In this document: one piece after another, positions 8,676 to 33,856 of the stretch | Layout of the letters: each line of letters opens with the position of its first letter | Numbering within the stretch: the first letter of the stretch is position 1 | Program-made: the position numbers and the translations under genes | The notes under the pieces: generated by a model | The model's input: only the letters and a program-made list of their open reading frames with translations | The model's database searches: none | Told to the model about the DNA's origin: nothing | Assembly: GCF_014252955.1 (NCBI RefSeq) | Contig: NZ_JACMIA010000001.1 | Coordinates: 2,068,258 to 2,132,257, forward strand | From: Stappia sp. 28M-7 | GTDB taxonomy: Bacteria; Pseudomonadota; Alphaproteobacteria; Rhizobiales; Stappiaceae | Reading direction: 5' to 3' | DNA: 64,000 nt

Positions 8676-9761
8676 TCAGGTGCCTTTGCGACTGAGGTTC
8701 CCGGACGTCCCGAGCGGTGGCAGGACCGTGCCGGGCGGGGGGAGGAACGGCGCAAGGTCCACCGCCTGAAAGCGGCGCGCATGCGTGTGCGACCAGGCAG
8801 GACGGCGGTCGCGGTCGATCATCGCCGCACGGATCCCTTCAGTGAAATCCGGGTGGGTCAGCAGCCGGGAAACCACGGCATATTCGAGGCCGAGCGCGGC
8901 CTCCAGGCTCTGCTGCCGGCGGGCGCACGCAAGCACCTCCAGCGTCAGCGCAAGCGCAAGGGGCGATGCCTTCCCAAGCGCGCGGGCTGCACGCGCGCAG
9001 GGCTCGCCGCCGGCTTCCAGCCGCGCGAGGATCTGCGGCACATCGGGGGCGGCGAAGGCTCGCTCCAGTTCAGGAGGGACGCCGGGAAGTCGGGGGACGC
9101 CCGACCCGGCCGGCACGGGCTCCGGCAGGGCGGCAATGCCCTTTTCGCCGAGCGCCTGGACAAGCTCCGGCATCTGCTGCGAGGCGACCCGGTAGCGCAC
9201 GAGACCGAGCGCGGCGGCCGCATCCGCGCCGAGCTTCTCGCCGGTGAGCGCGATGAAGGCGGCAAGCGGAGCGGGGAGGCCGGAGAGAAGATGCGAGGCG
9301 CCGGAATCGGGGATCCAGCCGATGCCGCATTCCGGCATGGCGAAGCTCGCCCGCTCGCTGGCGACGGGATGGCTTGCATGCAGCGCAAGCCCGAGGCCGC
9401 CGCCCATGGCAACGCCGTCGATCAGCGCGACGACGGGCTTCGGGTAGCGCGCAAGGGTGAGGTCGAGACGATATTCGGCAAGGCAGTGGCCGCGCGCGCC
9501 CTCCACATCGCCCTGGGCGACCCGGCCATGCACGGCGGCAATGTCGCCGCCGGCGCAAAAGGCCCGCCCGCCAACCGCATCTAGGACGACGAGTTCGGTG
9601 GTCGGATCGCAGCGCCAGTCCTCGAGCGCCAAGGCGATGCCGGCAAGCATCGCCTCGCTCAGCATGTTGAGGGCGCGCGGACGGTTCAGAGTGATCCGTC
9701 CGGCGCGGCCCTGGCGCTGCACCACAAGTTCGTCCCGCGAGGGGACGGCGGCCGCGCTCAA
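8676..9761 (-). CDS. Enoyl-CoA hydratase/3-hydroxyisobutyryl-CoA hydrolase-like protein
   Basis: Crotonase-fold protein of about 361 residues, the length of HIBCH enzymes, which hydrolyse 3-hydroxyisobutyryl-CoA in valine breakdown. The family signature is present: AFCAGGDIAAVHG forms the first oxyanion loop, GVAMGGGLGLALHASH the second, and FAMPECGIGWIPDSG contains the acidic residue of the hydrolase group. The reading frame runs open far upstream, but homology begins near RDELVVQRQGRAG, so I place the start at TTG 9761, whose codon overlaps the TGA of the upstream KAS III gene; GTG 9725 is an alternative. As last gene of the minus-strand biosynthetic operon it may act as a hydratase or thioesterase on the pathway thioester. 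Confidence 0.82.
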   Translation of the reverse strand: MSAAAVPSRDELVVQRQGRAGRITLNRPRALNMLSEAMLAGIALALEDWRCDPTTELVVLDAVGGRAFCAGGDIAAVHGRVAQGDVEGARGHCLAEYRLDLTLARYPKPVVALIDGVAMGGGLGLALHASHPVASERASFAMPECGIGWIPDSGASHLLSGLPAPLAAFIALTGEKLGADAAAALGLVRYRVASQQMPELVQALGEKGIAALPEPVPAGSGVPRLPGVPPELERAFAAPDVPQILARLEAGGEPCARAARALGKASPLALALTLEVLACARRQQSLEAALGLEYAVVSRLLTHPDFTEGIRAAMIDRDRRPAWSHTHARRFQAVDLAPFLPPPGTVLPPLGTSGNLSRKGT

Positions 9762-10768
9762 TGGTGGATGAGGGCCGCCGACCAGGCGAAGCCCGCACCA
9801 TTGGAGACGACCATCACCTTGTCGCCGGTGCGGATCAGGTTCTGCTCCACCGCCTCGGCATAGTTGATGACCATGTCGCTTTCCTGGACATGGCCGCGAT
9901 GCTTGAGCGCGCTGGTGTAGACCTTCTCCGGCGGCAGGCCGAACTTCTTCATGAAATAGGCCTGATCCCAGGTCGAGAAGGTCGGATAGACGTAATAGTC
10001 GACGTCGTCGAAGCCGAGGTTCAGCTTGTCGAGCAGCTGGGTCATCACCTTGCCGAACATGCGGAAATTGATCGGGATGACGCCCTCGTTGAACTTGTCC
10101 ATCTTGGCGTACATGTGCAGCAGCCGCTCGGTGACTTCCTCGTTCGGCTGGCGGTTCTGCAGGCCGGGCACGTACCACACATCGTGCAGCCGGCCGATGG
10201 AGATGGTCTCCACGCCAAGGATGCGCGCGCGGGTCGCATTCTTGCGCAGCACCAGGGCGCTGCCGCCGTCGCTCGCCACGGTGATCGGGTAGTAGGTCTT
10301 GTTGAGATCCGGCGTGCGGTCGCCGGCAAAGAGCAGCGCCGTCGACACGTCGTCGTCGGCCAGCATCAGGGAGACGACGGTCTTCAGCGCCAGATGGTAG
10401 CTGGCGCAGCCGCCGGTGTTGACGGCGGTGGCGAAGGCATTGTCCAGCCCCAGTTCCTGCTGCACGAGACCGGCGGCCGACCAGGTCGGCCCGACATAGT
10501 CTTCCGGGATCGAGGTGAAGTCGACGACGAGGTCCACCTCGCCGGGCGCGACGCCGGCCTGGTCGAGGGCGCGGCGCGCGGCGGCGATGGCCAGCACCGA
10601 GGGCAGCTCGTCGGTGACATGGATGTCATGGATGCCGATGTCGCGCTGGAAGTCGATGTTCTTCGACAAGGTGCCGAAGGGCACGTCCTCGTCGCGGAAC
10701 ACGTCCGCCACCAGCTTCTTGTCGGGCGGAAGGTAGAAGGCTTCGGAAAGGATGCCGACGTGGTCCAT
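9758..10768 (-). CDS. KAS III (FabH-like) condensing enzyme, catalytic-Cys subunit
   Basis: Thiolase-fold protein of 336 residues resembling 3-oxoacyl-ACP synthase III. Cys121 in NTGGCASYHLAL aligns with the FabH nucleophile. The usual catalytic His (VPHQAN in FabH) is absent (VYPTFS), and the Asn position carries His293 (HRGHVQESD). The C-terminal glycine-rich strand is SNGAGFAWSAALIHH. The enzyme would take an acyl or aminoacyl thioester onto Cys121 and condense it with a second substrate or transfer it. It lies immediately after a sister gene lacking the Cys, suggesting a heterodimer like PqsB/PqsC. Seen: residues; inferred: partner and chemistry. Confidence 0.85.
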   Translation of the reverse strand: MDHVGILSEAFYLPPDKKLVADVFRDEDVPFGTLSKNIDFQRDIGIHDIHVTDELPSVLAIAAARRALDQAGVAPGEVDLVVDFTSIPEDYVGPTWSAAGLVQQELGLDNAFATAVNTGGCASYHLALKTVVSLMLADDDVSTALLFAGDRTPDLNKTYYPITVASDGGSALVLRKNATRARILGVETISIGRLHDVWYVPGLQNRQPNEEVTERLLHMYAKMDKFNEGVIPINFRMFGKVMTQLLDKLNLGFDDVDYYVYPTFSTWDQAYFMKKFGLPPEKVYTSALKHRGHVQESDMVINYAEAVEQNLIRTGDKVMVVSNGAGFAWSAALIHH

Positions 10769-10782
10769 CTGGATCTCCCTTG

Positions 10783-11799
10783 TCAGTATTTCAGCAAGGT
10801 GGCGCCGTAGAGAAAGCCGTGGCCATGGGTGGCCAGCAGGACATGGGTGCCGGCGGGCGGCGCCTCTTCCTCCAGTTCCAGCATGTTGAGTACGAGGTCC
10901 GAGGCATGCAGGTGCCCGCGCGAGGCAAAGCCCGCCGGCACCAGCCGCTCGCCGGCGCCGAGGCCGTCGCCGACCGCCTGTGCGTCCGAGGCGGAGATGT
11001 TGGCGGTGATGGTGCGGCCGATGTCGCTCCCCGACAGCCCGTGCCGGGCGAGCAGTTTGTCGACCAGTCCCTTGAGCTCGTTGGTGCGGTCGGCGCGCGC
11101 GTGCTTGGCCGCGTCCAGCGTCAGCCGGTAGAGGTCGAGCCGGGTCGGGTGCTTCATGCCGCCGCCGGGAATGTTCAGCACGTCGTGCAGCGCGCCGGTC
11201 GAGCGCATGGCGGTGCCCAGGATCCGGGCGCGGCCCGCGCCGCGCGCCACGATGACGGCGCTGGCCCCATCCCCCAGCACGGTGAGCGGGGCGTCCTTGC
11301 CGGCGATCACCCGGTTGCCGGATATTGCCTGATCGGAGGCCACCAGCAGCACCCGGTGCACATCGTCGTTGGCGAGGATCAGCGCGCGGGCGAACTTGAT
11401 CGCCGCATGCAGGTTCGACGAATGGCCGCCGCTATAGCCGAGGGTGAAGGCGCGCTTGGCGCCGAGTTCGGCCTGCAGCTCGTTGCTCATCGACCAGGCC
11501 GGCTCGACATAGCGCTGCGGCATCATCGAGAAGTCGATGATCGCATCGAGGTCGAGCGGGGTAAGGCCGGCGGTCTCCAGCACCTTGCGCGATACCGCAA
11601 CGGCCATGTCGGTGGGGCTTTCGCCCTCGAAGACATGAACGCTGTCGACGCCGAGCCGCGCGGCGGCGGTGACATCGACCGGGCCCGTCTCGCGGGCAAT
11701 GATCTCGTCGAGCGTGTTGGTGCGCTCGGGCAGGTAATGGGCGGCCGCAAGCAGGCCGACGGGTTCCGTAACGCTGTCTCTGGCGCTTTCGCGGGTCAT
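10783..11799 (-). CDS. KAS III-like protein lacking the catalytic Cys
   Basis: Second FabH-like protein, 338 residues, colinear with its neighbour. At the nucleophile position it has His126 (GYSGGHSSNL) in place of Cys. The catalytic-His position reads TANISAS, and His296 (SRGHLHASD) again replaces Asn. The C-terminus ATHGHGFLYGATLLKY keeps the family ending. Without Cys it cannot form the acyl-enzyme in the usual way, so it is probably the non-catalytic or cavity-shaping half of a heterodimer with the next gene, or has changed chemistry to acyl transfer. The stop lies 14 bases before the partner gene. Confidence 0.82.
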   Translation of the reverse strand: MTRESARDSVTEPVGLLAAAHYLPERTNTLDEIIARETGPVDVTAAARLGVDSVHVFEGESPTDMAVAVSRKVLETAGLTPLDLDAIIDFSMMPQRYVEPAWSMSNELQAELGAKRAFTLGYSGGHSSNLHAAIKFARALILANDDVHRVLLVASDQAISGNRVIAGKDAPLTVLGDGASAVIVARGAGRARILGTAMRSTGALHDVLNIPGGGMKHPTRLDLYRLTLDAAKHARADRTNELKGLVDKLLARHGLSGSDIGRTITANISASDAQAVGDGLGAGERLVPAGFASRGHLHASDLVLNMLELEEEAPPAGTHVLLATHGHGFLYGATLLKY

Positions 11800-11923
11800 G
11801 GGATCCGGCTCCTGGCTGGGAGAAGGGTGCGCGCCGCCCGGCCTGCCTGCTCGCCCGCCAGCCGTGACGGCCAGCGGGCAAGCTCAAGCAGGGCGAGGGC
11901 GAACCAGTGGGGTGCCGAGCCGC

Positions 11924-13645
11924 TCAGGCGGCCCGTGCCGCCCCGGTGCAGGCCTCGATGATGTCCGCCGGCACCGTGTGGTCGTCGTACCAGCGGCCCG
12001 ACAGAGGCTTCTTCACCAGCGCGACATCGGCCGCGTAGGAGAGGATCTCGTCGTTGTGCCGGCCGATCTCCTGGCGCAGCGAGGCGGACAGCCCGCCGTC
12101 GAGCTCATAGGCCCGGTCGACGGAGCCCGTGAGGTAGCGCAGGTGGTCGATGCGGTCGTTGACGATCTTGATCGAGCGCTTGGTGATGCGGCCGAACTCC
12201 GCCTTGTCGTTGGCCATGACCTGCATGGCCTCGTACATGCTGGGCAGGAACTCGTCGCGCTTCATCCACTTGGTCTCGTAGTTCATCGCGTCGCGCCAGC
12301 GCGGCTGGGTGAGCGACTTGCGATGGGACTCAAGATCGCGGTGGAACACCGTGTAGCCGTGCTCCTCCGGCTGCTCGAACCACTGGCAGCCCGGATCGAG
12401 GAACGGCACCATGCCGAAGATCGTCGGGATCACCTTGTCGTTCGGGAAGCGCTGCATCAGCCGGCGCGAATAGGCGACCGTCTCCATTACCGAGGCATGG
12501 GTCTGCTTCGGCATGCCGATCGTGTACCAGAGGTAGAAGCCCTTGATGCCGACATCGAGCGCGGCGGCGATCCAGTCCTCCATCTCCTCGTTGGTATAGG
12601 TGCCGCGCCCGCTGAGCCGGCTGATCTCCACGTCGTGCGATTGCGGCGACAGGTTGATGTAGATGTCGAGGTTGGGCGCGACCTCGGCCATCTGCTTGAG
12701 CACGGACGGCTTGGTCAGGCGGAACTGCTCGAAGGAGACCGAACTGACGACGCCGCTGTCGTTGACCGCCTCCAGGTAGGAGAGCAGGCGCGGGGCGGAT
12801 TCCGAGTAGGCCTGCAGCGTGTAGACGCTGAGCGGGGACTCGGTCTTGGGGAAGGTGGTGATCTCCCGCGCCAGCTGCTCCGAGCGGCGGTGGAAGACGG
12901 TCTTCTTCTCCACGTTCATCATCCGCTGATAGGCCCAGCGCGAGCCCGAGCACCAGCCGCAGCTCTGCTGGCAGCCGGTGTTCGGCAGCACCATCAGGTT
13001 CGGCATGTTCAGCAGGTTGTCGGTCTTGGGGAACATCTTCGACCAGTCGATCGCCACGTCGTTGAGCACGTCGGGCGTGTAGGTATGGCCGTTGTCGACG
13101 ACTTCCCCCTTGTCCTTGTAGACCATGTTCTGGACGTCGAGGCGCCCGCGTACGCCGCGCTTGAGCTGCCCGACGAGATCGGCCAGCGGCTCCAGCGTGT
13201 CGTAGCCGCGGATGACGCCGTCGATCTGCGGGTACTGCATCATCTCGCGGGCATAGTAGGTGGAGACGATGCCGCCGAAGACGACGAAGCTGTCGGGGTG
13301 CACCTTCTTCAGCACCCCGGCGACTTCGATGGAGCCCTGGCAGTGGGGCAGCCAGTGCAGGTCGATGCCGAAGGCGGGGGCGTCGAGATACTGGAACAGC
13401 TTCTCCACGTCGAGCGTGGGGTGCTTCAGCATCAGCGACGCCAGGTTGACGATCTTCACGTCCAGCCCGCGCTCGGCAAGGAAGCTCTTGATCGACAGGA
13501 AGCCGAGCGGGTGCATCTCGAAGATCGGGGTGACGTTGCTGCTCTCCTGGCTGGAATACCAGCCGAGAACGAAGTCGTCCCGGTTGCGGAAGTCGAAGAT
13601 CGCCGGTGCGTGGACCAGGATCAGGTCGGCCTTGATGCGTGTCAT
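11924..13645 (-). CDS. Radical SAM enzyme with B12-binding-like N-terminal domain
   Basis: 573 residues. The N-terminal 150 residues form a cobalamin-binding-type Rossmann region (HPLGFLSIKSFLAERG, then VVFGGIVSTYYARE), as in class B radical SAM methylases and anaerobic Mg-protoporphyrin cyclase relatives. A normal DxHxxG lower-ligand motif is not evident; the stretch reads GIDLHWLPHCQG. The radical SAM core carries Cys225, Cys229 and Cys232 in NTGCQQSCGWCSG, the CX3CX2C set that binds the 4Fe-4S cluster. A long C-terminal region follows. It lies between the carrier-protein gene and the KAS III pair and probably methylates, rearranges or couples an intermediate. Substrate unknown. Confidence 0.85.
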   Translation of the reverse strand: MTRIKADLILVHAPAIFDFRNRDDFVLGWYSSQESSNVTPIFEMHPLGFLSIKSFLAERGLDVKIVNLASLMLKHPTLDVEKLFQYLDAPAFGIDLHWLPHCQGSIEVAGVLKKVHPDSFVVFGGIVSTYYAREMMQYPQIDGVIRGYDTLEPLADLVGQLKRGVRGRLDVQNMVYKDKGEVVDNGHTYTPDVLNDVAIDWSKMFPKTDNLLNMPNLMVLPNTGCQQSCGWCSGSRWAYQRMMNVEKKTVFHRRSEQLAREITTFPKTESPLSVYTLQAYSESAPRLLSYLEAVNDSGVVSSVSFEQFRLTKPSVLKQMAEVAPNLDIYINLSPQSHDVEISRLSGRGTYTNEEMEDWIAAALDVGIKGFYLWYTIGMPKQTHASVMETVAYSRRLMQRFPNDKVIPTIFGMVPFLDPGCQWFEQPEEHGYTVFHRDLESHRKSLTQPRWRDAMNYETKWMKRDEFLPSMYEAMQVMANDKAEFGRITKRSIKIVNDRIDHLRYLTGSVDRAYELDGGLSASLRQEIGRHNDEILSYAADVALVKKPLSGRWYDDHTVPADIIEACTGAARAA

Positions 13646-13691: not shown

Positions 13692-13964
13692 TTACGCCGC
13701 CGCTGACGTGATCTTGCTGTGACAGAAACCGGAGAGCGCGTTCAGCGTCTTGTAGTTCTGCGAGGTGATCTCGTCCTCGTCGATGGCGATGCCGAATTCC
13801 TTTTCCATGTATTCGGTGACCTCGGCGATGCCGAGGGAGTCGAGAATGCCGCTGTCCAGCAGGTTCTCTTCCGGGTCGATGCCGCCCGAAACGTTCACGC
13901 CGGAGTTTTCCATCAGGTAGGCGAGCAGGTTCTTCTGTACGCTCATCAGGTCGGGTGCAGTCAC
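13692..13964 (-). CDS. Free-standing acyl/peptidyl carrier protein
   Basis: 90-residue carrier protein. Ser43 in the GILDSLGIAE motif is the expected phosphopantetheine site. Acidic helix II residues and the ending IDEDEITSQNYKTLNALSGF look like free carriers that work with stand-alone adenylation enzymes (for example PltL/PigG in pyrrole pathways or DltC). It would hold the growing intermediate for the dehydrogenase, radical SAM protein and KAS III pair. The adenylation gene at the far end of the locus is the candidate loader. Start ATG has GGAGAAGG upstream. Confidence 0.9.
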   Translation of the reverse strand: MTAPDLMSVQKNLLAYLMENSGVNVSGGIDPEENLLDSGILDSLGIAEVTEYMEKEFGIAIDEDEITSQNYKTLNALSGFCHSKITSAAA

Positions 13965-14280: not shown

Positions 14281-15429
14281 CTACAGACCGAGGGCGCGGG
14301 CGGCGATGGTGCGCTGGATGTCGGACGTGCCGGAATAGAGCAGGCTGCCGACCGCGTCGCGGAAGTCGCGCTCCACCTCGTAGTCGGCCATGTAGCCGTA
14401 GCCGCCATGGATCACGACCGAGTTCTGGCACGAGGCGACCCAGGCCTCGCTCAAGTAGAGCTTGGCGAGCGCGGCCTCCATCGGGCAGCTGCCCTTGGTC
14501 TTCTTCAGCCAGGCGACCTTGTAGAGCAGCAGCCGCGAGGTCTCGTGCCGCAGCTTCATGTCGACGATGCGGTTGGACACCGACTGGAACTTGCCGATCG
14601 GCTTGCGGAACTGGGTGCGCTTGTTGGCGTGGGCGACGCACTGCTCCACCTGGTGTTCCATTGCGCCGACCAGGTTGGCCAGGATCGAACTGCGCTCCCA
14701 CTCCATCGAGTTGTTGAAGATGCGCCCGCCCTGGCCCTCCTTGCCGATGCGCGCGGTGACCGGCACGCGGCAGTCCTCCAGCGTCAGCCAGGCCATCGGC
14801 GAGGTGCGCAGGCCCATCTTGCGGCGGTTCGCGCTGATGGTCAGGCCCGGCGTGTCGCGGTCGACGATGAAGCCGGTGAGGCCGAGCGAGCCGGCGCTCT
14901 TGTCGACCGTGGCGAAGATGACGAAGACATCCGCGACGGGTCCGTTGGTGCAGAACACCTTGGCGCCGTTGAGCACGTAGTGGTCGCCGTCGCGGGTGGC
15001 GGTGGTGCCGAGGCTCATCACGTCGGAGCCGGCCTCGGCCTCGGTGATGCCGTGGGCGCCGATCAGGTCGCCGGCAATCAGCCCGCGCAGGTACTTGTCC
15101 TTCTGCTCCGGCGTGCCGAACTGGGCGATCGGCATCTGCACGGTCCACATCTGGCCGTTCATGCTGAACAGCAGGCCGTTGTCGCGGCAGCCGTAGCCGA
15201 GCGCCTCCATGGCCAGCACCGTGGTGATGATGTCCTGTTCGGCGCCGCCATAGGCCTTCTCGAAGGGAAGGCCGAGGATGCCGAAGCCGGCGATCTTGCG
15301 CCACAGGTCGCGGGACAGGATGCACTCGGCATCGCGCTGCTTGAGGTCGCCCTCGTTGAGCTCGTCCTTGGCGAAGCGGACGACCTTCTCCTTGAAGGCC
15401 TCCTGCTCGGGAGTGAAGCTGAAGTCCAT
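14281..15429 (-). CDS. Acyl-CoA-dehydrogenase-like flavoprotein with relocated catalytic Glu
   Basis: 382 residues from ATG 15429, which follows GAGGAG by six bases. It has the normal ACAD order: N-terminal helices, FAD-binding ITEAEAGSD strand domain, C-terminal helices ending TSDIQRTIAARALGL. In most short-chain ACADs the base is Glu in YEGT; here it is Ser366 (YSGTSDIQR). A Glu at 243 or 245 (SMEWERSS) aligns with the helix-G base of isovaleryl- and long-chain-acyl-CoA dehydrogenases, a position also used, to my recollection, by aminoacyl-carrier-protein dehydrogenases. Next to a free carrier protein it may desaturate a carrier-bound amino-acyl or acyl group. It has its own upstream region and lies 316 bases before the carrier gene. 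Confidence 0.87.
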   Translation of the reverse strand: MDFSFTPEQEAFKEKVVRFAKDELNEGDLKQRDAECILSRDLWRKIAGFGILGLPFEKAYGGAEQDIITTVLAMEALGYGCRDNGLLFSMNGQMWTVQMPIAQFGTPEQKDKYLRGLIAGDLIGAHGITEAEAGSDVMSLGTTATRDGDHYVLNGAKVFCTNGPVADVFVIFATVDKSAGSLGLTGFIVDRDTPGLTISANRRKMGLRTSPMAWLTLEDCRVPVTARIGKEGQGGRIFNNSMEWERSSILANLVGAMEHQVEQCVAHANKRTQFRKPIGKFQSVSNRIVDMKLRHETSRLLLYKVAWLKKTKGSCPMEAALAKLYLSEAWVASCQNSVVIHGGYGYMADYEVERDFRDAVGSLLYSGTSDIQRTIAARALGL

Positions 15430-15948: not shown

Positions 15949-17007
15949 ATGAATCTGAGAAGGCTCAAGTTCTTTGTAACGGTTGCGGAAGAGTTGCATT
16001 TCGGCAGGGCTGCCGAACGCCTCTGTATGACGCAACCTCCGCTCAGTCAGGCCATTCTGGCATTGGAGGAGGAACTGTCCGTCACGCTGTTCAAGCGGAC
16101 GAAACGAAATGTCGCGCTGACGCCTGTCGGCGAGCACCTTCTGTCCCACGTGAGCAAGCTGCTGCAGGAGGTCGAAGCGCTGCCGGCGCTGGCGCGCCAG
16201 CTTTCCCGGGGCGAGATCGGCTCGCTCAAGCTCGGTTTCGTCACGACGGCGGACTACAATCTGCTGCCGGAGCTGATCAGCCACTACGGCGCCACCTTTC
16301 CGGAGGTGAAGGTGACGCTGAAGGAGATGACCAGCGACCTGCAGGTCGAGGCGTTGATGCAGGGGGACATCAATGCCGGGCTGATCATTCCGCTGCACCA
16401 GACCCTGCACACCTCGCTGTCCTATCTGCCGTTGCTGCATGAGCCGCTGGTGGCGGCGGTGCCGGAAGAGTGGGTGCGGGCAGGGCGTGTGGAGATCGTC
16501 AACGGCCGGCTGAAGATCCAGGACGTTGCCGAGGAACCCCTGGTTCTGTTCCCGCGGCGCTCCGCGCCGGCCTTCCACGACATCATCACCACCTATTTCG
16601 CCGCGAACGGCATCGAGCCCGTCATCGGCCAGGAAGCGATCCAGATGCAGACCATCATCAGCCTGGTCTCGGCCGGGATGGGCTTTGCGCTGGTGCCCGG
16701 CTCGCTGCGCCGGCTGGGGCGCATGGGGGTGCGGTATGTCGGCCTGGAAGGCAAGCCGCCGACGATCGAGACCGGCCTCGTCTGGCGCAAGGAAGATCCC
16801 TCGCCGACGGTGCTGCGCCTGGTGGAGATCGCCCGCAGCCTGGGCGAGCCCGTGTCCGACGACGACGGCAGCGCGGGCGAGGGCCGGGGCAATGGCCGCG
16901 GCGACGGGCTGGGCGGAGGAGCGCCGGGCGTCGGCCTGCCCGAGGCGGCGATGGTGCATGCCCGCCACGACCTGAACAGCCACGGCCACGCCGGCCGGCT
17001 GGACTGA
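15949..17007 (+). CDS. LysR-family transcriptional regulator
   Basis: 352 residues starting MNLRRLKFFVTVAEELHFGR, the standard LysR N-terminal helix-turn-helix (AAERLCMTQPPLSQAI). An effector-binding domain with two subdomains follows (about 90-300). I choose ATG 15949, since upstream in-frame codons add only atypical sequence. It is the best candidate to control the divergent dehydrogenase gene and the carrier-protein operon. The last 50 residues are an unusual Gly/Ala/Asp/His-rich tail (GEGRGNGRGDGLGGG) not normal for the family, perhaps a read-in extension. The effector is unknown; a pathway thioester or amino acid is plausible. Confidence 0.88.
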   Translation: MNLRRLKFFVTVAEELHFGRAAERLCMTQPPLSQAILALEEELSVTLFKRTKRNVALTPVGEHLLSHVSKLLQEVEALPALARQLSRGEIGSLKLGFVTTADYNLLPELISHYGATFPEVKVTLKEMTSDLQVEALMQGDINAGLIIPLHQTLHTSLSYLPLLHEPLVAAVPEEWVRAGRVEIVNGRLKIQDVAEEPLVLFPRRSAPAFHDIITTYFAANGIEPVIGQEAIQMQTIISLVSAGMGFALVPGSLRRLGRMGVRYVGLEGKPPTIETGLVWRKEDPSPTVLRLVEIARSLGEPVSDDDGSAGEGRGNGRGDGLGGGAPGVGLPEAAMVHARHDLNSHGHAGRLD

Positions 17008-17395: not shown

Positions 17396-19069
17396 GTGCC
17401 ATACAACGAGCGTTCGAAGACGATTTCGCAAGGGGTCGAGCGTTCGCCGAACAGGGCCATGTTCTATGGCCTCGGCTACACCAAGGAAGATTTCGACAAC
17501 CCGATGATCGGCATTGCCAACGGGCATTCGACGATCACGCCCTGCAACGCCGGTCTCCAGCCGCTCGCCGATGTGGCGGTGAAGGCGATCAAGGAGGCGG
17601 GCGCCAACCCGCAGATCTTCGGCGTGCCCACCATTTCCGACGGCATGTCGATGGGCACGGAAGGCATGAAGTACTCGCTGATCTCGCGCGAGGTCATCGC
17701 CGACTGCGTCGAGATGACGGTGCAGGGCCAGTGGATGGACGGCGTGCTGGTGCTGGGCGGCTGCGACAAGAACAAGCCCGGCGGCATGATCGGCATCGTC
17801 CGCGCCAACGTCCCGGCGATCTACGTTTATGGCGGCACCATCAAGCCGGGCAAGTGGAAGGGGCAGGACCTGTCGGTCATCTCCGCCTTCGAGGCTGTCG
17901 GCGCGATCAAGGCCGGCCGCATGAGCGAAGAGGACTTCGAGGGCATCGAGCGCAACGCCTGCCCGACGACCGGCGCATGCGGGGGCATGTACACCGCCAA
18001 CACCATGAGCTCCTCCTTCGAGGCGCTCGGCATGGCGCTGCTCTACTCCTCGACCATGGCCAATATCGACCAGGAGAAGTTCGACTCCACGGCCGAGTCC
18101 GCCCGCGTTCTCGTCGAGGCGGTGAAGAAGGGCCTGAAGCCGCGTGACATCGTCACCCGCAAGAGCGTCGAGAACGCGATCACCCTGGTGATGGCGACCG
18201 GCGGCTCCACCAACGCGGTGCTGCACTACCTGGCCATCTGCCACGCGGCCGAGGTCGAGTGGACGCTCGACGATTTCGAGCGGATCCGCCGCAAGGTTCC
18301 GGTGATCTGCGATCTCAAGCCGTCCGGCAAGTACATGGCGGTCGACCTGCACAAGGCGGGCGGCGTGCCGCAGATCCTCAAGATCCTGCTGAATGCCGGC
18401 CTGCTGCACGGCGACTGCATGACCATCACCGGCCGCACCCTGGCCGAGGAACTGGCCCATGTGCCGGATGCCCCGCCCGCCGACCAGGACGTCATCCGGC
18501 CGATCGAGGGCGCACTCTATCCGGAAGGCCACCTTGCGATCCTTCGCGGCAACCTGGCCGAGGACGGCGCGGTGGCCAAGATCACCGGCCTGAAGTCGAC
18601 CTCGATCACCGGCCCGGCGCGCGTCTTCGACGACGAGCAGTCGGCGATGGACGCGATCCTCTCCGACCGCATCCGCCCCGGCGATGTGCTGGTGCTGCGC
18701 TATCTCGGCCCGCGCGGCGGACCGGGCATGCCGGAGATGCTGGCCCCGACCTCGGCGATCATCGGCCGCGGTCTCGGCGCCGATGTCGGCCTGATCACCG
18801 ACGGCCGTTTCTCGGGCGGCTCGTGGGGCATGCTGGTTGGCCACGTCACGCCGGAGGCCTATGAGGGCGGCACCATCGCGCTCGTCGAGGAAGGCGACAC
18901 GATCACCATCGACGCCTCGCGCCAGCTGCTGCAGCTGGAGGTGGACGACGAGGAACTGGCCCGGCGCCGCGCCAACTGGCGCCAGCCGGAGCCGCGCTAC
19001 CGCAACGGCGTTCTCGGCAAGTTCGCCCAGCTCGCGCTGCCCGCCAACAAGGGCGCGGTGACGGGCTGA
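17396..19069 (+). CDS. ilvD: Dihydroxy-acid dehydratase (IlvD)
   Basis: Dehydrates 2,3-dihydroxy-isovalerate or -methylvalerate to the 2-oxo acids of valine and isoleucine, using an iron-sulfur cluster. GTG 17396 sits seven bases after AGGGAGG and gives a 557-residue protein. Cluster and metal ligands are in [20 protein letters not shown] and [15 protein letters not shown]; the C-terminal half has the SDGRFSGG-like block [12 protein letters not shown]. The HSTITPCN signature favours IlvD over sugar-acid dehydratases. It is separate from other ilv genes and sits between a LysR gene and a TRAP transporter, so it may be a pathway-dedicated copy supplying 2-oxoisovalerate. That specialised role is inference. 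Confidence 0.92.
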
Positions 19070-19110: not shown

Positions 19111-19703
19111 TCGCAGCCCAGGGCGGCAACGAAAACGGATAGAGCGGAATGACGATCTGACCGGAACGCGGCCCGCTCTAGGAGGCTGTCCGTCCGGCAT
19201 CCGCACCTCCGGTTGATGGGGGGATGGTGCCGGAGGCTGGACGGGCAGGCTTTCCGGGCGTCAGGACGGGGCATCGGTGCCCGGTCCCGCGGCCCGGCTT
19301 CGCGGTCTCGGCCTGCGGCGCGCAAGCCGCGCTGCGCCGAAATCCGGCCACCTGGCCGAACCGATGAGACCGGCCCCTCAAACCGGGCCGCCAAACGAAC
19401 ATCTGAAACGGGCCACCGAGCCGAGCCGCCAACCCGGGCCAGCTGCGCCCGACTTCAAAGGGGGCGAACGGGGAAGGCAGGGCGGCCGGCAACCGGACCA
19501 GCCGTCTCTGGGCGAGGATGCCAGCGTGTCAGCCGGGGTCGGAAGATCCCGGCCGCTGGCGTTTGCCTGCTCGCTTTGCCGGCTTGTGGTTTCGTGTTTC
19601 AACAGTCACAAGAAATAGAAAAATAGAATTAGACCGGGTCGGGCCCGCTTCATATCCTCATCTTACAATCGAATAGAATAATATTCGCTTGAGGAGGGGA
19701 ATG

Positions 19704-20885
19704 ATGTCGGCCGATGAGTGTTGTTGTTGCTTCCTTGATGTAAGTAACGTGGCGGCGGGGTCGGCGGTTTCCGTCCGTGCGGCAAGAGGAGCTGTAGGCG
19801 CTGGCCGGCGGGGGCGAGGGCGCATGCTGTTCCTGGCCGGAGCCATGGCGCTGGGGCTCGCTCCGGGCTGGATGGCTCCGGCGGAGGCCGCCAGCTATAC
19901 GATGACGATTGCCCATCTCTATCCGGACGACCTTGCCAACAACGAGACCGCGCCGGCCCTCAAGCATTTCGAGCAACTGGTCGAGAGCGCCACGGGCGGC
20001 GACATCGACGTGCAGATCTTCGGCAACGGCGCGCTCGGCGGCGAAGTTGAGGCCGCCCAGCAGGCCCGCGCCGGCAAGACCGTCCAGTCGGTCATGCTGG
20101 GCTCCGGCACGCAGGCCTCCTTCTTCCGCAATTACGAGATGATCACCTCGCCGTTCCTGTTCCCCGACTACCGGACGGCCTGGACCTTCTTCGACAGCCC
20201 GTGGTTCGCCAGGTTCATGAAGCCGATGGTGCAGGAAAGCGGGTTGCGCTACCTCGGCACGCTGGACGATGGCGGCGGCTTCGTCGCCTTCGCCAACAAC
20301 AAGCGGCTGATCACCAAGGTCGAGGACCTCAAGGGCCTGCGCATCCGCATCGAGGAAAACCAGGCGCACATGACGATCATGAGCGCGCTCGGCGCCTCGC
20401 CGACGACGCTGCCCTGGGGCGAGTTGCAGACCGGTCTGGCGACCGGCCTCGTCGACGGCCATTTCCATGCGCCCGGCGTCAACGACATCTTCAAGTTCTC
20501 GGACGTGACCGACTTCACCACCTGGAGCGGCCATGTCTACAACACCATCACCTGGAGCGTCAGCGAGGCCTGGTTCTCGCAGCTGCCCGACGACTACAAG
20601 AAGATCATCGTGACCTCGGCCCGCGAGGCGGTGGCGATGGCGCATGGCATCGCCGCGCAGATCACCGTCATCGGCTGGGTGAACTCCTGCAAGAAGTTCG
20701 AGCAGTGCCACATCCTCTCCGATGCCGAGAAGCAGCGAATGCGCGACATCTCGCAGCCTCTCTATCGCGAGTGGCTGGTGAAGGAGTTCGGGGAGAAGGC
20801 CTCGCTCTACGACGATCTGCGCGCCGAAGTCTCGCGCATCCATAACGAGCTGAACCGTTCCGCCGTCGAGCTTTATCTCGACTGA
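19704..20885 (+). CDS. dctP: TRAP transporter substrate-binding protein (DctP family)
   Basis: Periplasmic receptor for a TRAP importer, which takes up carboxylates using an ion gradient. ATG 19704 (or 19701) follows GAGGAGGGG. About 45 odd residues, including four consecutive Cys (DECCCCF), precede a signal-peptide core RMLFLAGAMALGLAPGWM ending AEA; ATG 19824 may therefore be the functional start. Mature sequence has the DctP pattern: HLYPDDLANNETAPALKHFE, FGNGALGGEVEAAQQ, then LKGLRIRIEENQAH with the ligand Arg, and WGELQTGLATGLVDGHFHAP. First gene of a dctPQM set. Substrate not predictable. Confidence 0.87.
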   Translation: MSADECCCCFLDVSNVAAGSAVSVRAARGAVGAGRRGRGRMLFLAGAMALGLAPGWMAPAEAASYTMTIAHLYPDDLANNETAPALKHFEQLVESATGGDIDVQIFGNGALGGEVEAAQQARAGKTVQSVMLGSGTQASFFRNYEMITSPFLFPDYRTAWTFFDSPWFARFMKPMVQESGLRYLGTLDDGGGFVAFANNKRLITKVEDLKGLRIRIEENQAHMTIMSALGASPTTLPWGELQTGLATGLVDGHFHAPGVNDIFKFSDVTDFTTWSGHVYNTITWSVSEAWFSQLPDDYKKIIVTSAREAVAMAHGIAAQITVIGWVNSCKKFEQCHILSDAEKQRMRDISQPLYREWLVKEFGEKASLYDDLRAEVSRIHNELNRSAVELYLD

Positions 20886-22988: not shown

Positions 22989-23030
22989 GCGGCTTCCTTT
23001 TCGACCAACGTCACACAGAGAGTGAAGACC

Positions 23031-23708
23031 ATGACCAAGGATCAATCGGTGGAGCGGCTGACCGCAGTCCTGCAGAAGATCGCGGCGGCGGAAGAGGTGC
23101 GCGAGGGCAATCCCGGCCCGGTGACGCTGGTCGCCGTCTCCAAGACCTTCGATGCGGATGCGATCCGCCCGGTGATCGCCGCAGGGGCCCGCGTGTTCGG
23201 CGAGAACAAGGTGCAGGAGGCGCAGGAGAAGTGGCCGGCGCTGAAGGCCGAGTATCCCGACATCGAGCTGCGCCTGCTCGGGCCGCTGCAGTCCAACAAG
23301 GCGAGGGATGCGGTCGCCCTGTTCGACGTGATTGAGTCCGTCGACCGGGAGAAGATCGCCGCCGAGATCTCCCGCGAGATCGCCCGCCAGGGCCGCAGCC
23401 CGCGCCTCTATGTGCAGGTGAATACGGGGCGCGAGCCGCAGAAGGCCGGCATCGATCCGGACGAGGCCATCGCCTTTGTCGAGCGCTGCCGGGATGTGCA
23501 CGGGCTGACCATCGAGGGGCTGATGTGCATCCCGCCGGCAGGCGAGGATCCCGCGCCGCATTTCGAGCTGCTGGCCGCGCTCGCCGACAAGGCGGGCCTT
23601 GCGCGCCGGTCCATGGGCATGTCCGGCGACTACGAGAAGGCGGTGATCTACGGCGCGACCAGCGTACGCGTCGGCTCGGCCATCTTCGGCGCCCGCACCT
23701 ATGCCTGA
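23031..23708 (+). CDS. YggS/PLPBP-family pyridoxal phosphate homeostasis protein
   Basis: 225 residues. Fold type III alanine-racemase-like TIM barrel without the second domain, the YggS/PROSC family, which binds PLP without known catalysis and buffers B6. The PLP lysine is in VAVSKTF (VSK motif), followed by FGENKVQEAQEKW and the phosphate-binding MGMSGDYEKAV and VRVGSAIFGAR stretches. ATG 23031 is preferred; GTG 23022 is possible. In most bacteria yggS lies near proC or cell-division genes; here it is between TRAP and kinase-like genes, so a dedicated role in a PLP-related or amino-acid pathway is possible. Confidence 0.88.
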   Translation: MTKDQSVERLTAVLQKIAAAEEVREGNPGPVTLVAVSKTFDADAIRPVIAAGARVFGENKVQEAQEKWPALKAEYPDIELRLLGPLQSNKARDAVALFDVIESVDREKIAAEISREIARQGRSPRLYVQVNTGREPQKAGIDPDEAIAFVERCRDVHGLTIEGLMCIPPAGEDPAPHFELLAALADKAGLARRSMGMSGDYEKAVIYGATSVRVGSAIFGARTYA

Positions 23709-23753
23709 CCCACGCCCGACCAGCAGTTTTCTTACCATTCAGGACGCTACTCG

Positions 23754-25106
23754 ATGAACATCAACGCTCACCAGAAGCTGGACTACCGGATCACCCACCA
23801 GTTCGACGGCCTGACCATTTCGGACGGCGAGTTCCAGCGCCTGCTCGACATCGCCAGCTGGAACGGCCATGTGCCGACCTTCACCCGGCGCGGCCGCGGC
23901 TCCTGGGAAAGCCTGAACGAGCCCATCGCGCTGAAGGACGACCCCTCGGTCACCTTCCACGCGGCCAAGCTCAAGGGCGTCGGCCTGTGGAACCCGATCC
24001 TGCCGGGCGATGCGGAATATTCCAACAAGCTGCATGACGATGCCGGCAACGACCCGGTGCCGCCGCTGACGGACCTCCTGGAATATCTCGTCACCTATCC
24101 GCATTTCGGCATCTCGAACGAGGGCGAGTACAAGTACGCCTACAGCTCGCCGAGCCCCATCGGCGGCATCGTCCACGAGCGCGCCCATCGCGAGTTCTGG
24201 TCGGCCGAGCGGCTGGTGCGCCACGGCGTGCCGACCATCGCGCCGCTGGCGGTGATCGAGTATGGCGGCAACCTGTCCTTCCAGGGCCAGCCGATGGGCG
24301 CGGTGCTGACGCTCTCGCCCGGCTCCGCCTCCTACCGCATCTCGGAGATCCTGTTCGGTGCCGGCATGGTGCGCGGCAGCGATCCCGCCTTCGACGCCCA
24401 TTACGACGGCATCCGCGAGGCGCTCGGCGTCGAGGGCGACCCGGACGACGAGCGCGTCCGCCTGACGGTGATCTGCAAGCTCGCCCGCGAGGCCGGCAAG
24501 CTGCTGCACGACTTCTCGCTCGCCGAGCTCTACCGCTACTCCGGCGACTGGGGCAATTTCGTCTATTCGGTCGAGAGCAAGCGGCTCTTCCTGATCGACC
24601 TCGATTCCGTGCAGGACATCAACCACCTGCCGCCGACGGCAAAGGCGATGCAGTCCTGGCGCGACCTGGCCAGCGCCATCTACCGGATGGTCGGCAAGCT
24701 CGGCTACCCGACCGCGCTCGGCAAGTACACCATCGACAACCTGATGGAGTTCGACCCGATCGCCGCGAAGATCGCCGGCTATTTCCCGGACGTGCCGGAG
24801 GCCGAGATCCGCACCATCTCCCGCCGCCTGTGGGGCTACTTCATTCCGCATCTGGCGCTGCTGACCAAGCACCGGGACGACATTCTCGGCGGCTGGGACG
24901 GGGACCGGCGCAAGTCCTACAAGATGGACCACGACCTCTTCTACATCCTGGCGCTGACCCTGCTGCGGCCGCTGTTCGAGCACAGCGCGGTCGGGCGCAA
25001 GTATCCGAGCGACATCACCGACGACGAGATGTGGGGCAAGGCCGAGCGCTTCCTCGGCAACCGCTTCCAGTATTTCGCCTGGCTGATGGGCCGGTACGAC
25101 ATTTAG
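23754..25106 (+). CDS. Protein-kinase-like fold protein of unknown substrate
   Basis: 450 residues, not recognised as a named family. The order of motifs suggests a kinase or aminoglycoside-phosphotransferase-like fold. A Lys in AKLKGVG (72/74) may be the ATP-binding lysine, Glu147 in HREFWSAERLVRHGVP a helix-C Glu, His252-Asp253 (LLHDFS) the catalytic loop, Asn268 (GDWGNFVY) a metal ligand and Asp282/Asp284 (LFLIDLDSV) the DFG-like Asp. About 165 C-terminal residues without clear motif follow. It is 17 bases ahead of the adenylation gene, so the two are likely co-expressed. It could phosphorylate a hydroxyl of a small amino-acid intermediate to make a leaving group. Kinase assignment is by pattern only. 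Confidence 0.6.
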   Translation: MNINAHQKLDYRITHQFDGLTISDGEFQRLLDIASWNGHVPTFTRRGRGSWESLNEPIALKDDPSVTFHAAKLKGVGLWNPILPGDAEYSNKLHDDAGNDPVPPLTDLLEYLVTYPHFGISNEGEYKYAYSSPSPIGGIVHERAHREFWSAERLVRHGVPTIAPLAVIEYGGNLSFQGQPMGAVLTLSPGSASYRISEILFGAGMVRGSDPAFDAHYDGIREALGVEGDPDDERVRLTVICKLAREAGKLLHDFSLAELYRYSGDWGNFVYSVESKRLFLIDLDSVQDINHLPPTAKAMQSWRDLASAIYRMVGKLGYPTALGKYTIDNLMEFDPIAAKIAGYFPDVPEAEIRTISRRLWGYFIPHLALLTKHRDDILGGWDGDRRKSYKMDHDLFYILALTLLRPLFEHSAVGRKYPSDITDDEMWGKAERFLGNRFQYFAWLMGRYDI

Positions 25107-25123
25107 AAAATCGGGAGACGACG

Positions 25124-26740
25124 ATGGCGCGCATCATTCCGCGAATGCTTCAGGCTCTGGCACGGCACGCGCCGGAGGCTGCCGCCATCGCCTTCGAGGG
25201 CACGACATGGACGCGGGCGGAGCTGCAGGACTTCGCCGCCCGCGTTGCCGGCGCCCTGCGCGCCGGCGGTGTGCGCCGCGACGACCGGGTCGCGGTCTAT
25301 CTCGACAAGTCGCCGGAGGCGGTCGGCACGCTGCTCGGCGTGATGATGGCGGACGCGATCTGCGTGCCGCTTGATCCGACCGGCCCGGCGCCGCGCCTTG
25401 CCGCCATCCTGAAGGATTGCGAGCCGTCGATGCTCGTCTCCTCCGCCAACAAGGCGAAGCGGCTGGAGGCGCTGGCGGCCGAGGGGTGCGAGCTGCCGCC
25501 GGTGCTGGTGACGGGCGGCGTGCCGCTGGCGCTGTCGGCGGAGGCGCGCGGCATCGCCCCGGTGATGCTGGAGCCCCAGGATGAGACGAAGGATAAGGCG
25601 AGGGGTGAAGCGGCCGCGCCGCCGCCCTCGCAGGTGATCGACGAGGACCTCGCCTATATCCTCTACACCTCCGGCTCGACCGGAAAGCCCAAGGGCGTGA
25701 TGATCAGCCACCGGGCCATCGTCGCCTTCTCAGACTGGGCGGGCGAGTATTTCGCGCTTCACGCGCAGGACCGGGTCGCCTCGCATTCGCCGCTGCATTT
25801 CGACCTGTCGCTGTTCGATGTGTGGACGACGCTGGCGCACGGGGCCTGTGTGCACCTAGTGCCGCAGGGCATTTCCTTCATGGCGACGGACCTGGTGCGC
25901 TTCATCGCCGAAAGCCGCGTGACGGTGTGGCAGTCCGTGCCTTCCGTGCTGCGGATGATTACCCGCCAGCTCGGCGATCCGGGTCCGGAATACGACCAGC
26001 TGCGGCTGATCTTCTTTGCCGGCGAGCCCTATCCGCCGGCGGAGCTGCGCGAGCTGATGAGCCGCCTGCCGAATGCGCGCTACCACAACATCTACGGCGC
26101 GACGGAGATCAACGACGTCACCTGCCACACGCTGACCGGGCTGCCGGATGACGGGCCGCTGCCCATCGGCGTGCCCTGCGCGCACATGGAGGTCCTGGTG
26201 CTGGGCGAGGAGGGGGAGGTGCTGTCGGCGCAAGGCGCGGTCGGCGAGCTGTGCGCCCGCGGGCCGACGCTGGCCAGGGGGTATTGGGGCGATCCCGCGA
26301 TGACGGCGGCGAAGTTCGTCCAGGACCCGCGCCACGATCTCTACCCCGATCCGCTCTACCGCACCGGCGATCTGGTGCGCATCGGCGAGGGAGGCACGCT
26401 TCACTATGTCGGAAGGCGCGACGCCCAGGTGAAGATCCGCGGCTTCCGCGTCAATATCGGCGAGGTCGAGGAGGCCTTGCTGCGCCACGACGCCATCAGC
26501 GAGGTGGCGGTGATCGACGAGCTCGACGCCGACGGCAACCGCACGCTGGCCGCCTGCTTCATCGCGCACCGCGAGGTGCCGGACGCACGCACGCTGAAGC
26601 GCCACTGCCTTGCCTTCCTGCCCAACTACATGGTGCCCGAGCGCTTCGTGCCGGTCGATACCCTGCCGCGTACTTCGACCGGCAAGATCGACCGCCAGGC
26701 ACTGCGACGGCAGCAGGAGGCAATGGCGCAGCCTGCCTGA
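25124..26740 (+). CDS. Free-standing amino-acid adenylation enzyme (ANL superfamily)
   Basis: 538 residues, an adenylation domain without fused carrier domain. Core motifs are LAYILYTSGSTGKPKGVM (A3), HFDLSLFDVW (A4), NIYGATEIND (A5), LYRTGDLVR (A7), GRRDAQVKIRGFRVNIGEVE (A8) and RTSTGKIDRQAL with the catalytic Lys (A10). Asp in FDLS matches the residue that binds the alpha-amino group, so an amino acid is the likely substrate. By alignment with GrsA by eye the pocket reads roughly D-L-F-S-F-A-I-D-V, which I cannot match to a known specificity. Closest in style to DltA or PltF-type loaders. The free carrier protein at 13.7-14.0 kb is the obvious acceptor. Confidence 0.88.
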   Translation: MARIIPRMLQALARHAPEAAAIAFEGTTWTRAELQDFAARVAGALRAGGVRRDDRVAVYLDKSPEAVGTLLGVMMADAICVPLDPTGPAPRLAAILKDCEPSMLVSSANKAKRLEALAAEGCELPPVLVTGGVPLALSAEARGIAPVMLEPQDETKDKARGEAAAPPPSQVIDEDLAYILYTSGSTGKPKGVMISHRAIVAFSDWAGEYFALHAQDRVASHSPLHFDLSLFDVWTTLAHGACVHLVPQGISFMATDLVRFIAESRVTVWQSVPSVLRMITRQLGDPGPEYDQLRLIFFAGEPYPPAELRELMSRLPNARYHNIYGATEINDVTCHTLTGLPDDGPLPIGVPCAHMEVLVLGEEGEVLSAQGAVGELCARGPTLARGYWGDPAMTAAKFVQDPRHDLYPDPLYRTGDLVRIGEGGTLHYVGRRDAQVKIRGFRVNIGEVEEALLRHDAISEVAVIDELDADGNRTLAACFIAHREVPDARTLKRHCLAFLPNYMVPERFVPVDTLPRTSTGKIDRQALRRQQEAMAQPA

Positions 26741-33852: not shown

Positions 33853-33856
33853 GGGC

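What the first reader, a model, noticed from the sequence alone, without database searches (positions are those of the whole stretch)
8676..26740. Possible undescribed small-molecule locus: carrier protein, free adenylation enzyme, radical SAM/B12-like enzyme and paired KAS III proteins
Seen: a free carrier protein with GILDSLG, an ACAD-like flavoprotein, a CX3CX2C radical SAM protein, two KAS III-like proteins and a HIBCH-like hydrolase on one strand; IlvD, a full TRAP importer, a YggS protein, a kinase-like protein and a stand-alone adenylation enzyme on the other, with a LysR gene between. From family knowledge, adenylation enzyme plus free carrier plus ACAD is the logic of carrier-bound amino-acid oxidation (pyrrole pathways). 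Inference: an amino acid is loaded on the carrier, oxidised, altered by radical SAM chemistry and released or condensed by the KAS III pair. I know no described pathway with this set.
Basis: partly seen in the sequence, partly recalled or inferred. Interest (0 to 1): 0.85.

Follow-up and report, generated by a model that had tools for sequence, protein, structure and literature searches.

The report
Small-molecule cluster with private tRNA-Cys
Marine Stappia bacteria carry one conserved gene cluster that appears to load, oxidise and methylate a proline-like amino acid on a carrier protein, and it brings its own spare cysteine tRNA gene, hinting that cysteine-tRNA is either a building block or the target of the unknown product.

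Summary
Both recur in one Mesorhizobium strain and, scattered, in one Salinarimonadaceae MAG. "No described pathway with this set" is only partly right. Adenylation enzyme, free carrier, prolyl-ACP-dehydrogenase-type ACAD, B12/radical SAM enzyme and KAS III-like transferase is the enzyme logic of the clorobiocin methylpyrrole pathway (CloN2-CloN6). The Mesorhizobium copy also has a second cysteinyl-tRNA synthetase gene overlapping the hydrolase gene. Best reading: an oxidised, C-methylated proline-like acyl unit is built on the carrier and moved by the KAS III pair; the spare tRNA-Cys, CysRS and dehydratase protect the producer, feed the pathway, or are passengers. The chemistry is inferred; co-occurrence and spare genes are shown.

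The parts
5938..6711 (+). Fe(II)/2-oxoglutarate oxygenase (WelO5-like; HxD motif read by eye, so a hydroxylase rather than a halogenase); possible accessory tailoring gene in Stappia
   Evidence: PF22814 46.7 bits; in the same 12 of 14 Stappia genomes as the cluster (in G003 at the edge of another contig); no match in the Mesorhizobium stretches
6866..8440 (-). MFS efflux transporter, candidate exporter; membership uncertain
   Evidence: PF07690; adjacent in most carriers but no match in the G008 stretch and a 13% fragment in G011; also next to a siderophore locus
8676..9761 (-). HIBCH-like acyl-thioester hydrolase (ECH_2), candidate release enzyme; TTG start assumed
   Evidence: the Glu and Asp recalled as catalytic are kept in all 13 sequences aligned (none found in the MAG); start candidates
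9758..10768 (-). KAS III-A, Cys121-His293-Asp298
   Evidence: triad in 14 of 14
10783..11799 (-). KAS III-B; Ser127 in the window at the nucleophile position, His and Asp kept
   Evidence: at the position of KAS III-A Cys121 Ser in 11 and Cys in 3 of 14, His and Asp in 14 of 14
11924..13645 (-). cobalamin-binding radical SAM enzyme, candidate C-methylase
   Evidence: PF02310, TIGR04190 below cut-off; CxxxCxxC in 14 of 14
13692..13964 (-). free carrier protein (phosphopantetheine site), GTG start
   Evidence: PF00550; LDSLG in 14 of 14
14281..15429 (-). ACAD of the prolyl-ACP dehydrogenase type
   Evidence: best solved relative 4irn 434.7 bits; SMEWER motif in 14 of 14; Met57 of the open frame taken as start
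15949..17007 (+). LysR-type regulator between the arms
   Evidence: PF00126/PF03466
17165..17178 (+). conserved footprint AAATATATTTCTGA ahead of ilvD
   Evidence: within 3 mismatches in 13 of 13 intergenic stretches, Mesorhizobium included; one round of shuffled stretches reached at most 4; place checked
17396..19069 (+). extra dihydroxy-acid dehydratase (IlvD); start of the conserved part given
   Evidence: TIGR00110 734 > 618 bits; a match of 1155 bits or more in the 12 carriers, best 224 bits in the two non-carriers
19701..20885 (+). DctP, TRAP substrate-binding protein (start approximate)
   Evidence: PF03480
20989..21708 (+). DctQ, TRAP small membrane subunit (start approximate)
   Evidence: PF04290
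21705..22988 (+). DctM, TRAP large membrane subunit
   Evidence: PF06808
23022..23708 (+). YggS-family PLP-binding protein
   Evidence: TIGR00044 over cut-off
23754..25106 (+). unclassified conserved protein (ORFX); kinase-like motifs GDWGN...LIDLDS by eye
   Evidence: no Pfam or NCBIfam match for the window protein up to E = 10; in 12 of 61 relatives, all Stappia
25124..26740 (+). stand-alone amino-acid adenylation enzyme, pocket DLFQFAIDV
   Evidence: TIGR01733; pocket stretch best matches the solved prolyl ligase 6o6e; pocket read
26833..26906 (-). extra tRNA-Cys (GCA), distinct from the housekeeping tRNA-Cys
   Evidence: ARAGORN; same place in 10 of 10 further Stappia loci scanned and in Mesorhizobium; sequences
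32464..37512 (-). branched-chain 2-oxoacid dehydrogenase genes, conserved neighbour, membership unproven
   Evidence: within the next 20 kb in 7 of 7 Stappia flanks fetched, and about 1 kb beyond the tRNA in Mesorhizobium

Best explanation
One transferable biosynthetic cluster. The adenylation enzyme loads a small proline-like amino acid on the free carrier; the ACAD oxidises it there; the cobalamin/radical SAM enzyme C-methylates the bound unit; KAS III-A (with KAS III-B as partner or second transferase) takes the acyl group on its active-site Cys and passes it to an acceptor, or condenses it; the HIBCH-like enzyme hydrolyses the final or stalled thioester. The TRAP importer brings in a precursor, LysR controls both arms, and in Stappia a hydroxylase and perhaps the MFS pump finish and export the product. 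Spare copies of core functions (tRNA-Cys, in Mesorhizobium also CysRS, and a dihydroxy-acid dehydratase) protect the producer or feed the pathway. Shown: the gene set, its co-occurrence, intact active-site motifs, the spare copies. Inferred: the substrate, the order of steps, the product, the regulation, and the roles of the spare copies, TRAP, YggS and ORFX.
For: Markers of both arms in 12 of 14 Stappia, neither in G009/G013; gene order in 11 Stappia stretches, Mesorhizobium and, rearranged, the MAG; adenylation relative in the MAG on another contig. ACAD closest to prolyl-ACP dehydrogenase. Adenylation pocket stretch closest to the prolyl ligase 6o6e, 93.8 bits against 60.5 for the next. KAS III-A Cys-His-Asp in 14 of 14; its solved relatives are led by DpsC and include CerJ and ChlB3. 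CloN precedent. Extra tRNA-Cys, extra CysRS, extra IlvD. Footprint shared with Mesorhizobium ahead of ilvD.
Against: The adenylation pocket shares only 3 of the 9 positions read with the prolyl ligase, so proline itself is doubtful. The radical SAM enzyme is below the TIGR04190 cut-off and has no credible solved relative; methylation is assumed. CloN6 and CloN2 sequences were not compared. The MAG has no HIBCH or tRNA-Cys on the cluster contig and its parts are scattered. The best solved relative of KAS III-A, DpsC, is described as a condensing enzyme. No motif ahead of the carrier gene was shared by more than 7 of 12 stretches, so common control of the arms is not shown. TRAP, YggS and ORFX have no assigned step.
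Confidence: 0.5

Rival explanations
1. The spare tRNA-Cys and CysRS mean that Cys-tRNA is a substrate: the pathway joins cysteine from Cys-tRNA to the carrier-made acyl unit, with the extra CysRS (or ORFX) as transfer enzyme, as SbzA uses Ile-tRNA.
For: tRNA-Cys at the same place in two genera and distinct from the housekeeping copy; extra CysRS gene overlapping the HIBCH gene in Mesorhizobium, with KMAKS where the 4 other sequences aligned have KMSKS, on a long branch; SbzA precedent (PMC12945691 section 6).
Against: No LanB-like ligase, FemX-like or CDPS family was hit among the cluster proteins scanned; each of the 14 Stappia genomes has one CysRS match; no tRNA-Cys on the MAG's cluster contig.
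Confidence: 0.2
2. Self-protection: the product attacks CysRS or tRNA-Cys (and perhaps dihydroxy-acid dehydratase), and the spare copies are insensitive versions.
For: Extra copies of core functions in one cluster: IlvD, tRNA-Cys, CysRS in Mesorhizobium; dehydratase precedent aspterric acid/AstD (passages of PMC11528067) and IleRS precedent SbzA.
Against: The CysRS tree shows no special type in carrier Stappia: the two non-carriers nest among the 11 carriers placed (G008 not in the tree). The Stappia spare tRNA keeps the anticodon, acceptor stem and discriminator base of the housekeeping one; Mesorhizobium differs by one acceptor pair.
Confidence: 0.25
3. The tRNA-Cys is a passenger: the cluster travels as an island that integrated at a tRNA-Cys gene and kept a full copy; the Mesorhizobium CysRS is an unrelated neighbour.
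For: The tRNA 3' end faces the cluster, the usual orientation of islands at tRNA genes (recalled); patchy distribution.
Against: No second copy of the tRNA 3' end (23 bases, up to 3 mismatches) in the 64 kb window; the housekeeping tRNA-Cys lies elsewhere in a context shared by a carrier and the two non-carriers; the CysRS start overlaps the HIBCH stop. Integrases and island ends beyond the window were not searched.
Confidence: 0.35
4. Primary metabolism: the arms are a branched-chain acid uptake and degradation locus (IlvD, TRAP, HIBCH, ACAD, branched-chain oxoacid dehydrogenase nearby) rather than a specialised-metabolite cluster.
For: bkd genes near the cluster in 7 of 7 flanks fetched and in Mesorhizobium (not checked in the non-carriers); methylmalonate-semialdehyde dehydrogenase ahead of ilvD in the MAG.
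Against: A free carrier with an adenylation enzyme and a prolyl-ACP-type ACAD is not part of valine catabolism (family knowledge); patchy occurrence, 12 of 61 relatives.
Confidence: 0.12

Closest known systems
Clorobiocin/coumermycin methylpyrrole pathway (CloN1-CloN7)
   Same: Adenylation enzyme, free carrier, ACAD, proposed radical SAM methylase and a transferase acting on a carrier-bound proline-derived acyl unit (passages of PMC11218499, and PMC10849742; that CloN2 is KAS III-like is recalled)
   Different: One carrier only, a KAS III pair, HIBCH-like hydrolase, TRAP importer, extra IlvD, ORFX, tRNA-Cys; homology with CloN2 and CloN6 not tested
Prolyl-ACP dehydrogenase 4irn (AnaB of anatoxin synthesis, name recalled)
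   Same: ACAD 434.7 bits, SMEWER shared in the alignment
   Different: The adenylation pocket and the rest of the locus differ
KAS III-like enzymes ChlB3, CerJ and DpsC
   Same: Nucleophile, His and an Asp five residues after the His; DpsC best solved relative of KAS III-A
   Different: Low similarity (best 73.7 bits); two adjacent genes, one with Ser or Cys as nucleophile
SB-203208 cluster (SbzA, extra IleRS)
   Same: Extra aminoacyl-tRNA synthetase inside a biosynthetic cluster (Mesorhizobium only)
   Different: CysRS, not IleRS, plus a spare tRNA gene; no extra synthetase in Stappia
Aspterric acid self-resistance (AstD, extra dihydroxy-acid dehydratase)
   Same: Extra dehydratase with its Fe-S motifs beside biosynthetic genes
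   Different: Bacterial; no terpene-type gene among the locus genes scanned; insensitivity not tested

Membership tests
CloN-type carrier-bound methylpyrrole pathway | free carrier with phosphopantetheine site | tested here: met
   PF00550, LDSLG in 14 of 14
CloN-type carrier-bound methylpyrrole pathway | ACAD of the prolyl-carrier dehydrogenase group | tested here: met
   4irn 434.7 bits, next solved relative 319 bits; NCBIfam PigA and RedW best but under cut-off
CloN-type carrier-bound methylpyrrole pathway | adenylation enzyme specific for L-proline | tested here: inconclusive
   nearest solved relative of the pocket stretch is the prolyl ligase, but 6 of 9 pocket positions differ; pocket identical in 9 of 12 rows read (G007 dropped as truncated, MAG read apart)
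CloN-type carrier-bound methylpyrrole pathway | homologue of the methylase CloN6 | not tested
   domain type matches; CloN6 sequence was not in hand
CloN-type carrier-bound methylpyrrole pathway | KAS III-like acyltransferase (CloN2 role) | tested here: inconclusive
   acyltransferase-type triad present; activity and CloN2 homology untested
CloN-type carrier-bound methylpyrrole pathway | second carrier (CloN1) | tested here: not met
   one carrier gene among the locus genes scanned
TIGR04190 equivalog (Ta0216-type B12/radical SAM) | score over the curated cut-off of 500 bits | tested here: not met
   396.4 bits
IlvD dihydroxy-acid dehydratase (TIGR00110) | score over the curated cut-off, Fe-S cysteine motifs | tested here: met
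   734 > 618.15 bits; GGCDKN in 14 of 14, [10 protein letters not shown] exact in 13 of 14
Self-resistance dehydratase of the AstD kind | insensitivity to the cluster's own product | not testable with these tools
   needs the product and an enzyme assay
SbzA-type extra aminoacyl-tRNA synthetase | second synthetase gene inside the cluster | tested here: inconclusive
   met in Mesorhizobium, not in Stappia or the MAG (one CysRS match, on another contig)
PEARL (LanB-like peptide aminoacyl-tRNA ligase) pathway | LanB-like ligase gene in the locus | tested here: not met
   no such family among the locus proteins scanned

The most novel reading that the evidence does not exclude
A thiotemplated small-molecule cluster that carries its own tRNA-Cys, and in one host its own CysRS, because cysteinyl-tRNA is either a building block of the product or the process the product attacks: a biosynthetic cluster with a dedicated tRNA gene, built around a new C-methylated imino-acid acyl unit.
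Probability: 0.4. Interest if true: 0.85.

Novelty: new variant of a known kind. Interest (0 to 1): 0.6.

Why it matters
If the spare tRNA-Cys and CysRS are functional parts, the cluster points to a natural product that uses or blocks cysteinyl-tRNA. Searches for such a case returned no paper; a broader one held 65 papers, of which I saw the listing of 15. The library holds open-licence papers only. The locus would also give a marine alphaproteobacterial system for carrier-bound cobalamin/radical SAM chemistry. If the spare copies are passengers, it remains an uncharacterised relative, in logic, of the clorobiocin unit.

Tried and rejected
Considered and set aside: two unrelated loci side by side (against it: co-occurrence); IlvD as the only dehydratase (the two genomes without the cluster keep other paralogues; whether one of those is a true dihydroxy-acid dehydratase was not scanned); the window Lrp gene at 27053 as part of the set (the Mesorhizobium Lrp gene beside its tRNA is closer to the regulator at 38855 next to bkd, 48% against 30%); a special CysRS type in carrier Stappia (not seen); the two Actinobacteria B12/radical SAM loci as relatives of the cluster (only that gene matches; around it in L055 lie hydrogenase, TatC and other genes; L054 was not scanned against Pfam).

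The joint alignment puts Ser (11) or Cys (3) opposite Cys121 with His and Asp kept, so the idea of an inactive partner is dropped. Two of the 12 IlvD matches carry a TGA inside the matched span; it lies at query residue 16, ahead of the conserved start.

Led nowhere: structure prediction of ORFX from one sequence, mean pLDDT 35, so no fold search was run; profile search of solved structures with ORFX (best E 0.98); a SelO hit in 1 of 6 ORFX members, E 0.031, not relied on; plasmid collection searches with the radical SAM protein and ORFX (no match). CloN6 and CloN2 were not compared because their sequences were not in hand. G003 and G007 stretches are cut by contig ends.

Full report
What is there. 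The window lies in a 5.13 Mb genome of the genus Stappia, judged by the named records of near-identical loci. Minus arm, in transcription order: ACAD, carrier, B12/radical SAM enzyme, KAS III-B, KAS III-A, HIBCH-like hydrolase. Plus arm: LysR, IlvD, DctP, DctQ, DctM, YggS, ORFX, adenylation enzyme. A tRNA-Cys gene follows on the opposite strand at 26833-26906.

Are the two arms one thing? The radical SAM protein has a near full-length match at 86% identity or more in 12 of 14 Stappia genomes, none in the other 2 (G009, G013), and only weak matches (at most 38.7 bits) in 7 of the other 47 relatives searched. Among 385 genomes of the class, 1, the own genome, had a strong match. ORFX, from the other arm, is in the same 12 and in none of the other 49 of 61; it is in 1 of 146 Mesorhizobium genomes. 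The genes lie in the same order in the 11 further Stappia stretches, two of them cut by contig ends. A scan of the species-genome collection with the radical SAM protein gave 12 loci: 7 in records titled Stappia, 1 in a MAG titled Rhodobacteraceae with the Stappia layout, Mesorhizobium sp. Root554, a Salinarimonadaceae MAG, and 2 Actinobacteria at 37% identity; the search reaches close relatives only. In the 2 Actinobacteria only the radical SAM gene matches the window. Mesorhizobium keeps both arms, with an extra TRAP importer between LysR and ACAD. In the MAG, IlvD to ORFX plus ACAD, and the carrier-radical SAM-KAS III unit, lie far apart on one 44.8 kb contig, and an adenylation relative (52% identity to the Mesorhizobium one) lies on another contig; no HIBCH was found on the cluster contig.

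What the enzymes look like. The ACAD's best solved relative is a prolyl-ACP dehydrogenase (4irn, 434.7 bits; next 319 bits), and the motif SMEWER, shared in that alignment, is in 14 of 14 sequences. That its Glu is the catalytic base is recalled. The adenylation pocket stretch matches the L-prolyl ligase 6o6e best (93.8 bits, next 60.5). Read from that alignment, the pocket is DLFQFAIDV against DLLYLALVC, 3 of 9 the same; the mapping of pocket positions is recalled knowledge. The pocket is identical in 9 of 12 rows read, with one or two changes in the other 3. G007 was dropped as truncated; for the MAG 8 of 9 positions were read, one of them different. The substrate is thus probably a small, proline-like amino acid with a polar feature, not certainly proline.

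The KAS III pair. KAS III-A keeps Cys121, His293 and Asp298 in 14 of 14. KAS III-B has Ser (11, the window among them) or Cys (3) at the nucleophile position and keeps His and Asp in 14 of 14 (which corrects my motif reading). A paper on ChlB3 describes Cys113-His296-Asp301, shared with CerJ, as the triad of a KAS III-like acyltransferase, and DpsC as a condensing enzyme with Ser-His-His (passages of PMC9573744). DpsC is also the best solved relative of KAS III-A (73.7 bits). Transfer is favoured; condensation is not excluded. The HIBCH Glu and Asp are kept in all 13 rows aligned.

Comparison with the known. In clorobiocin, CloN4 activates proline, CloN5 carries it, CloN3 oxidises it, CloN2 moves it to CloN1, CloN6 methylates and CloN7 transfers (passages of PMC11218499); CloN6 is proposed to be a radical methylase (passages of PMC10849742). 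The Stappia minus arm plus the adenylation enzyme works on paper like this set. Membership is not claimed: no second carrier, no proven proline specificity, CloN6 and CloN2 homology untested.

What is new. (1) Extra tRNA-Cys. ARAGORN finds tRNA-Cys just beyond the adenylation gene in the window, in 10 of 10 further Stappia loci scanned (G007 was not scanned) and in Mesorhizobium; of the 14 loci given to, 11 have it, and the 3 without are two MAG stretches and the other half of the Mesorhizobium locus. By BLAST with the window's tRNA, the carriers G000, G008 and G011 have two full-length matches, the non-carriers G009 and G013 one (11 genomes given). A limit of that search: it found no full-length match in G014 and G020 and missed the Mesorhizobium cluster copy, so a divergent second copy in the non-carriers is not excluded. 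The housekeeping copy of G000 lies in a context shared with G009 and G013. The 11 Stappia cluster copies form a distinct type, with C where the housekeeping copies have A at the end of the anticodon loop; Stappia and Mesorhizobium cluster copies share a T in the T stem where the 8 housekeeping and 2 MAG copies aligned have C. (2) Extra CysRS. In Mesorhizobium a CysRS gene starts inside the end of the HIBCH gene, and another CysRS lies elsewhere in the genome. It keeps HIGN, has KMAKS where the 4 other sequences aligned have KMSKS and sits on a long branch. Each Stappia genome has one CysRS match, and the tree shows no special type in carriers (G008 not included). (3) Extra dihydroxy-acid dehydratase, over the TIGR00110 cut-off, at 1155 bits or more in the 12 carriers, best 224 bits in the 2 non-carriers. 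(4) Branched-chain oxoacid dehydrogenase genes lie near the cluster in 7 of 7 Stappia flanks fetched and in Mesorhizobium; the non-carriers were not checked. (5) A 2-oxoglutarate oxygenase gene at 5938 is in the same 12 of 14 genomes.

How it most likely works is in Best explanation. Supported by sequence: loading, carrier-bound oxidation, an enzyme-bound acyl intermediate. Inferred: methylation, transfer, release, export, regulation, and the roles of TRAP, YggS and ORFX. For the spare copies three readings stay open: Cys-tRNA as substrate (precedent SbzA; PMC12945691 abstract, outline, one passage and section 6 seen), self-protection (precedents SbzA and AstD, passages of PMC11528067), or a passenger tRNA at an island end. 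Against the last: no repeat of the tRNA 3' end elsewhere in the window and the overlap of CysRS with HIBCH. For it: the orientation of the tRNA and the patchy distribution.

Literature. Searches for TIGR04190, a CysRS self-resistance cluster, tRNA-Cys with tRNA-dependent clusters and a dedicated tRNA with self-resistance returned no paper. The Stappia searches returned one paper, on hopanoids (listing), and 136 papers of which 15 were listed, none with a Stappia term (listing). The library holds open-licence papers only, so this is weak evidence of absence.

Verdict. Observation confirmed; interpretation partly supported; a new variant of a known kind, with an unusual tRNA/CysRS feature that deserves a bench test.

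Noticed in passing
window 57-6711: Siderophore-type genes next to the cluster: NAD-binding reductase, ectoine-synthase-like cupin, lysine/ornithine N-monooxygenase, IucA/IucC synthetase; the last two gave no match in the stretches fetched for G008 and G011.
   Followed up: partly
L051:4993-8087: A second TRAP importer (DctP and DctM confirmed by Pfam, a DctQ-sized ORF between) sits between LysR and ACAD in the Mesorhizobium version of the cluster.
   Followed up: partly
L099:2243-4836: In the Salinarimonadaceae MAG a purC gene and a methylmalonate-semialdehyde dehydrogenase gene (both over their cut-offs) precede ilvD.
   Followed up: no
window 19611-19635: Conserved AT-rich stretch AGAAATAGAAAAATAGAATTAGACC between ilvD and dctP; its two 14-base parts are matched within 3 mismatches in 12 of 13 intergenic stretches.
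   Followed up: no
L103, L104 (CysRS of G013 and G009): CysRS of the two Stappia without the cluster sits on a long shared branch (0.57) inside the genus.
   Followed up: no
window 39371-54977: Iron, haem and zinc uptake genes: FecCD permeases, periplasmic binding protein, ABC ATPases, ZnuA, HemS/ChuX, TonB-dependent receptor, and a CobW protein.
   Followed up: no
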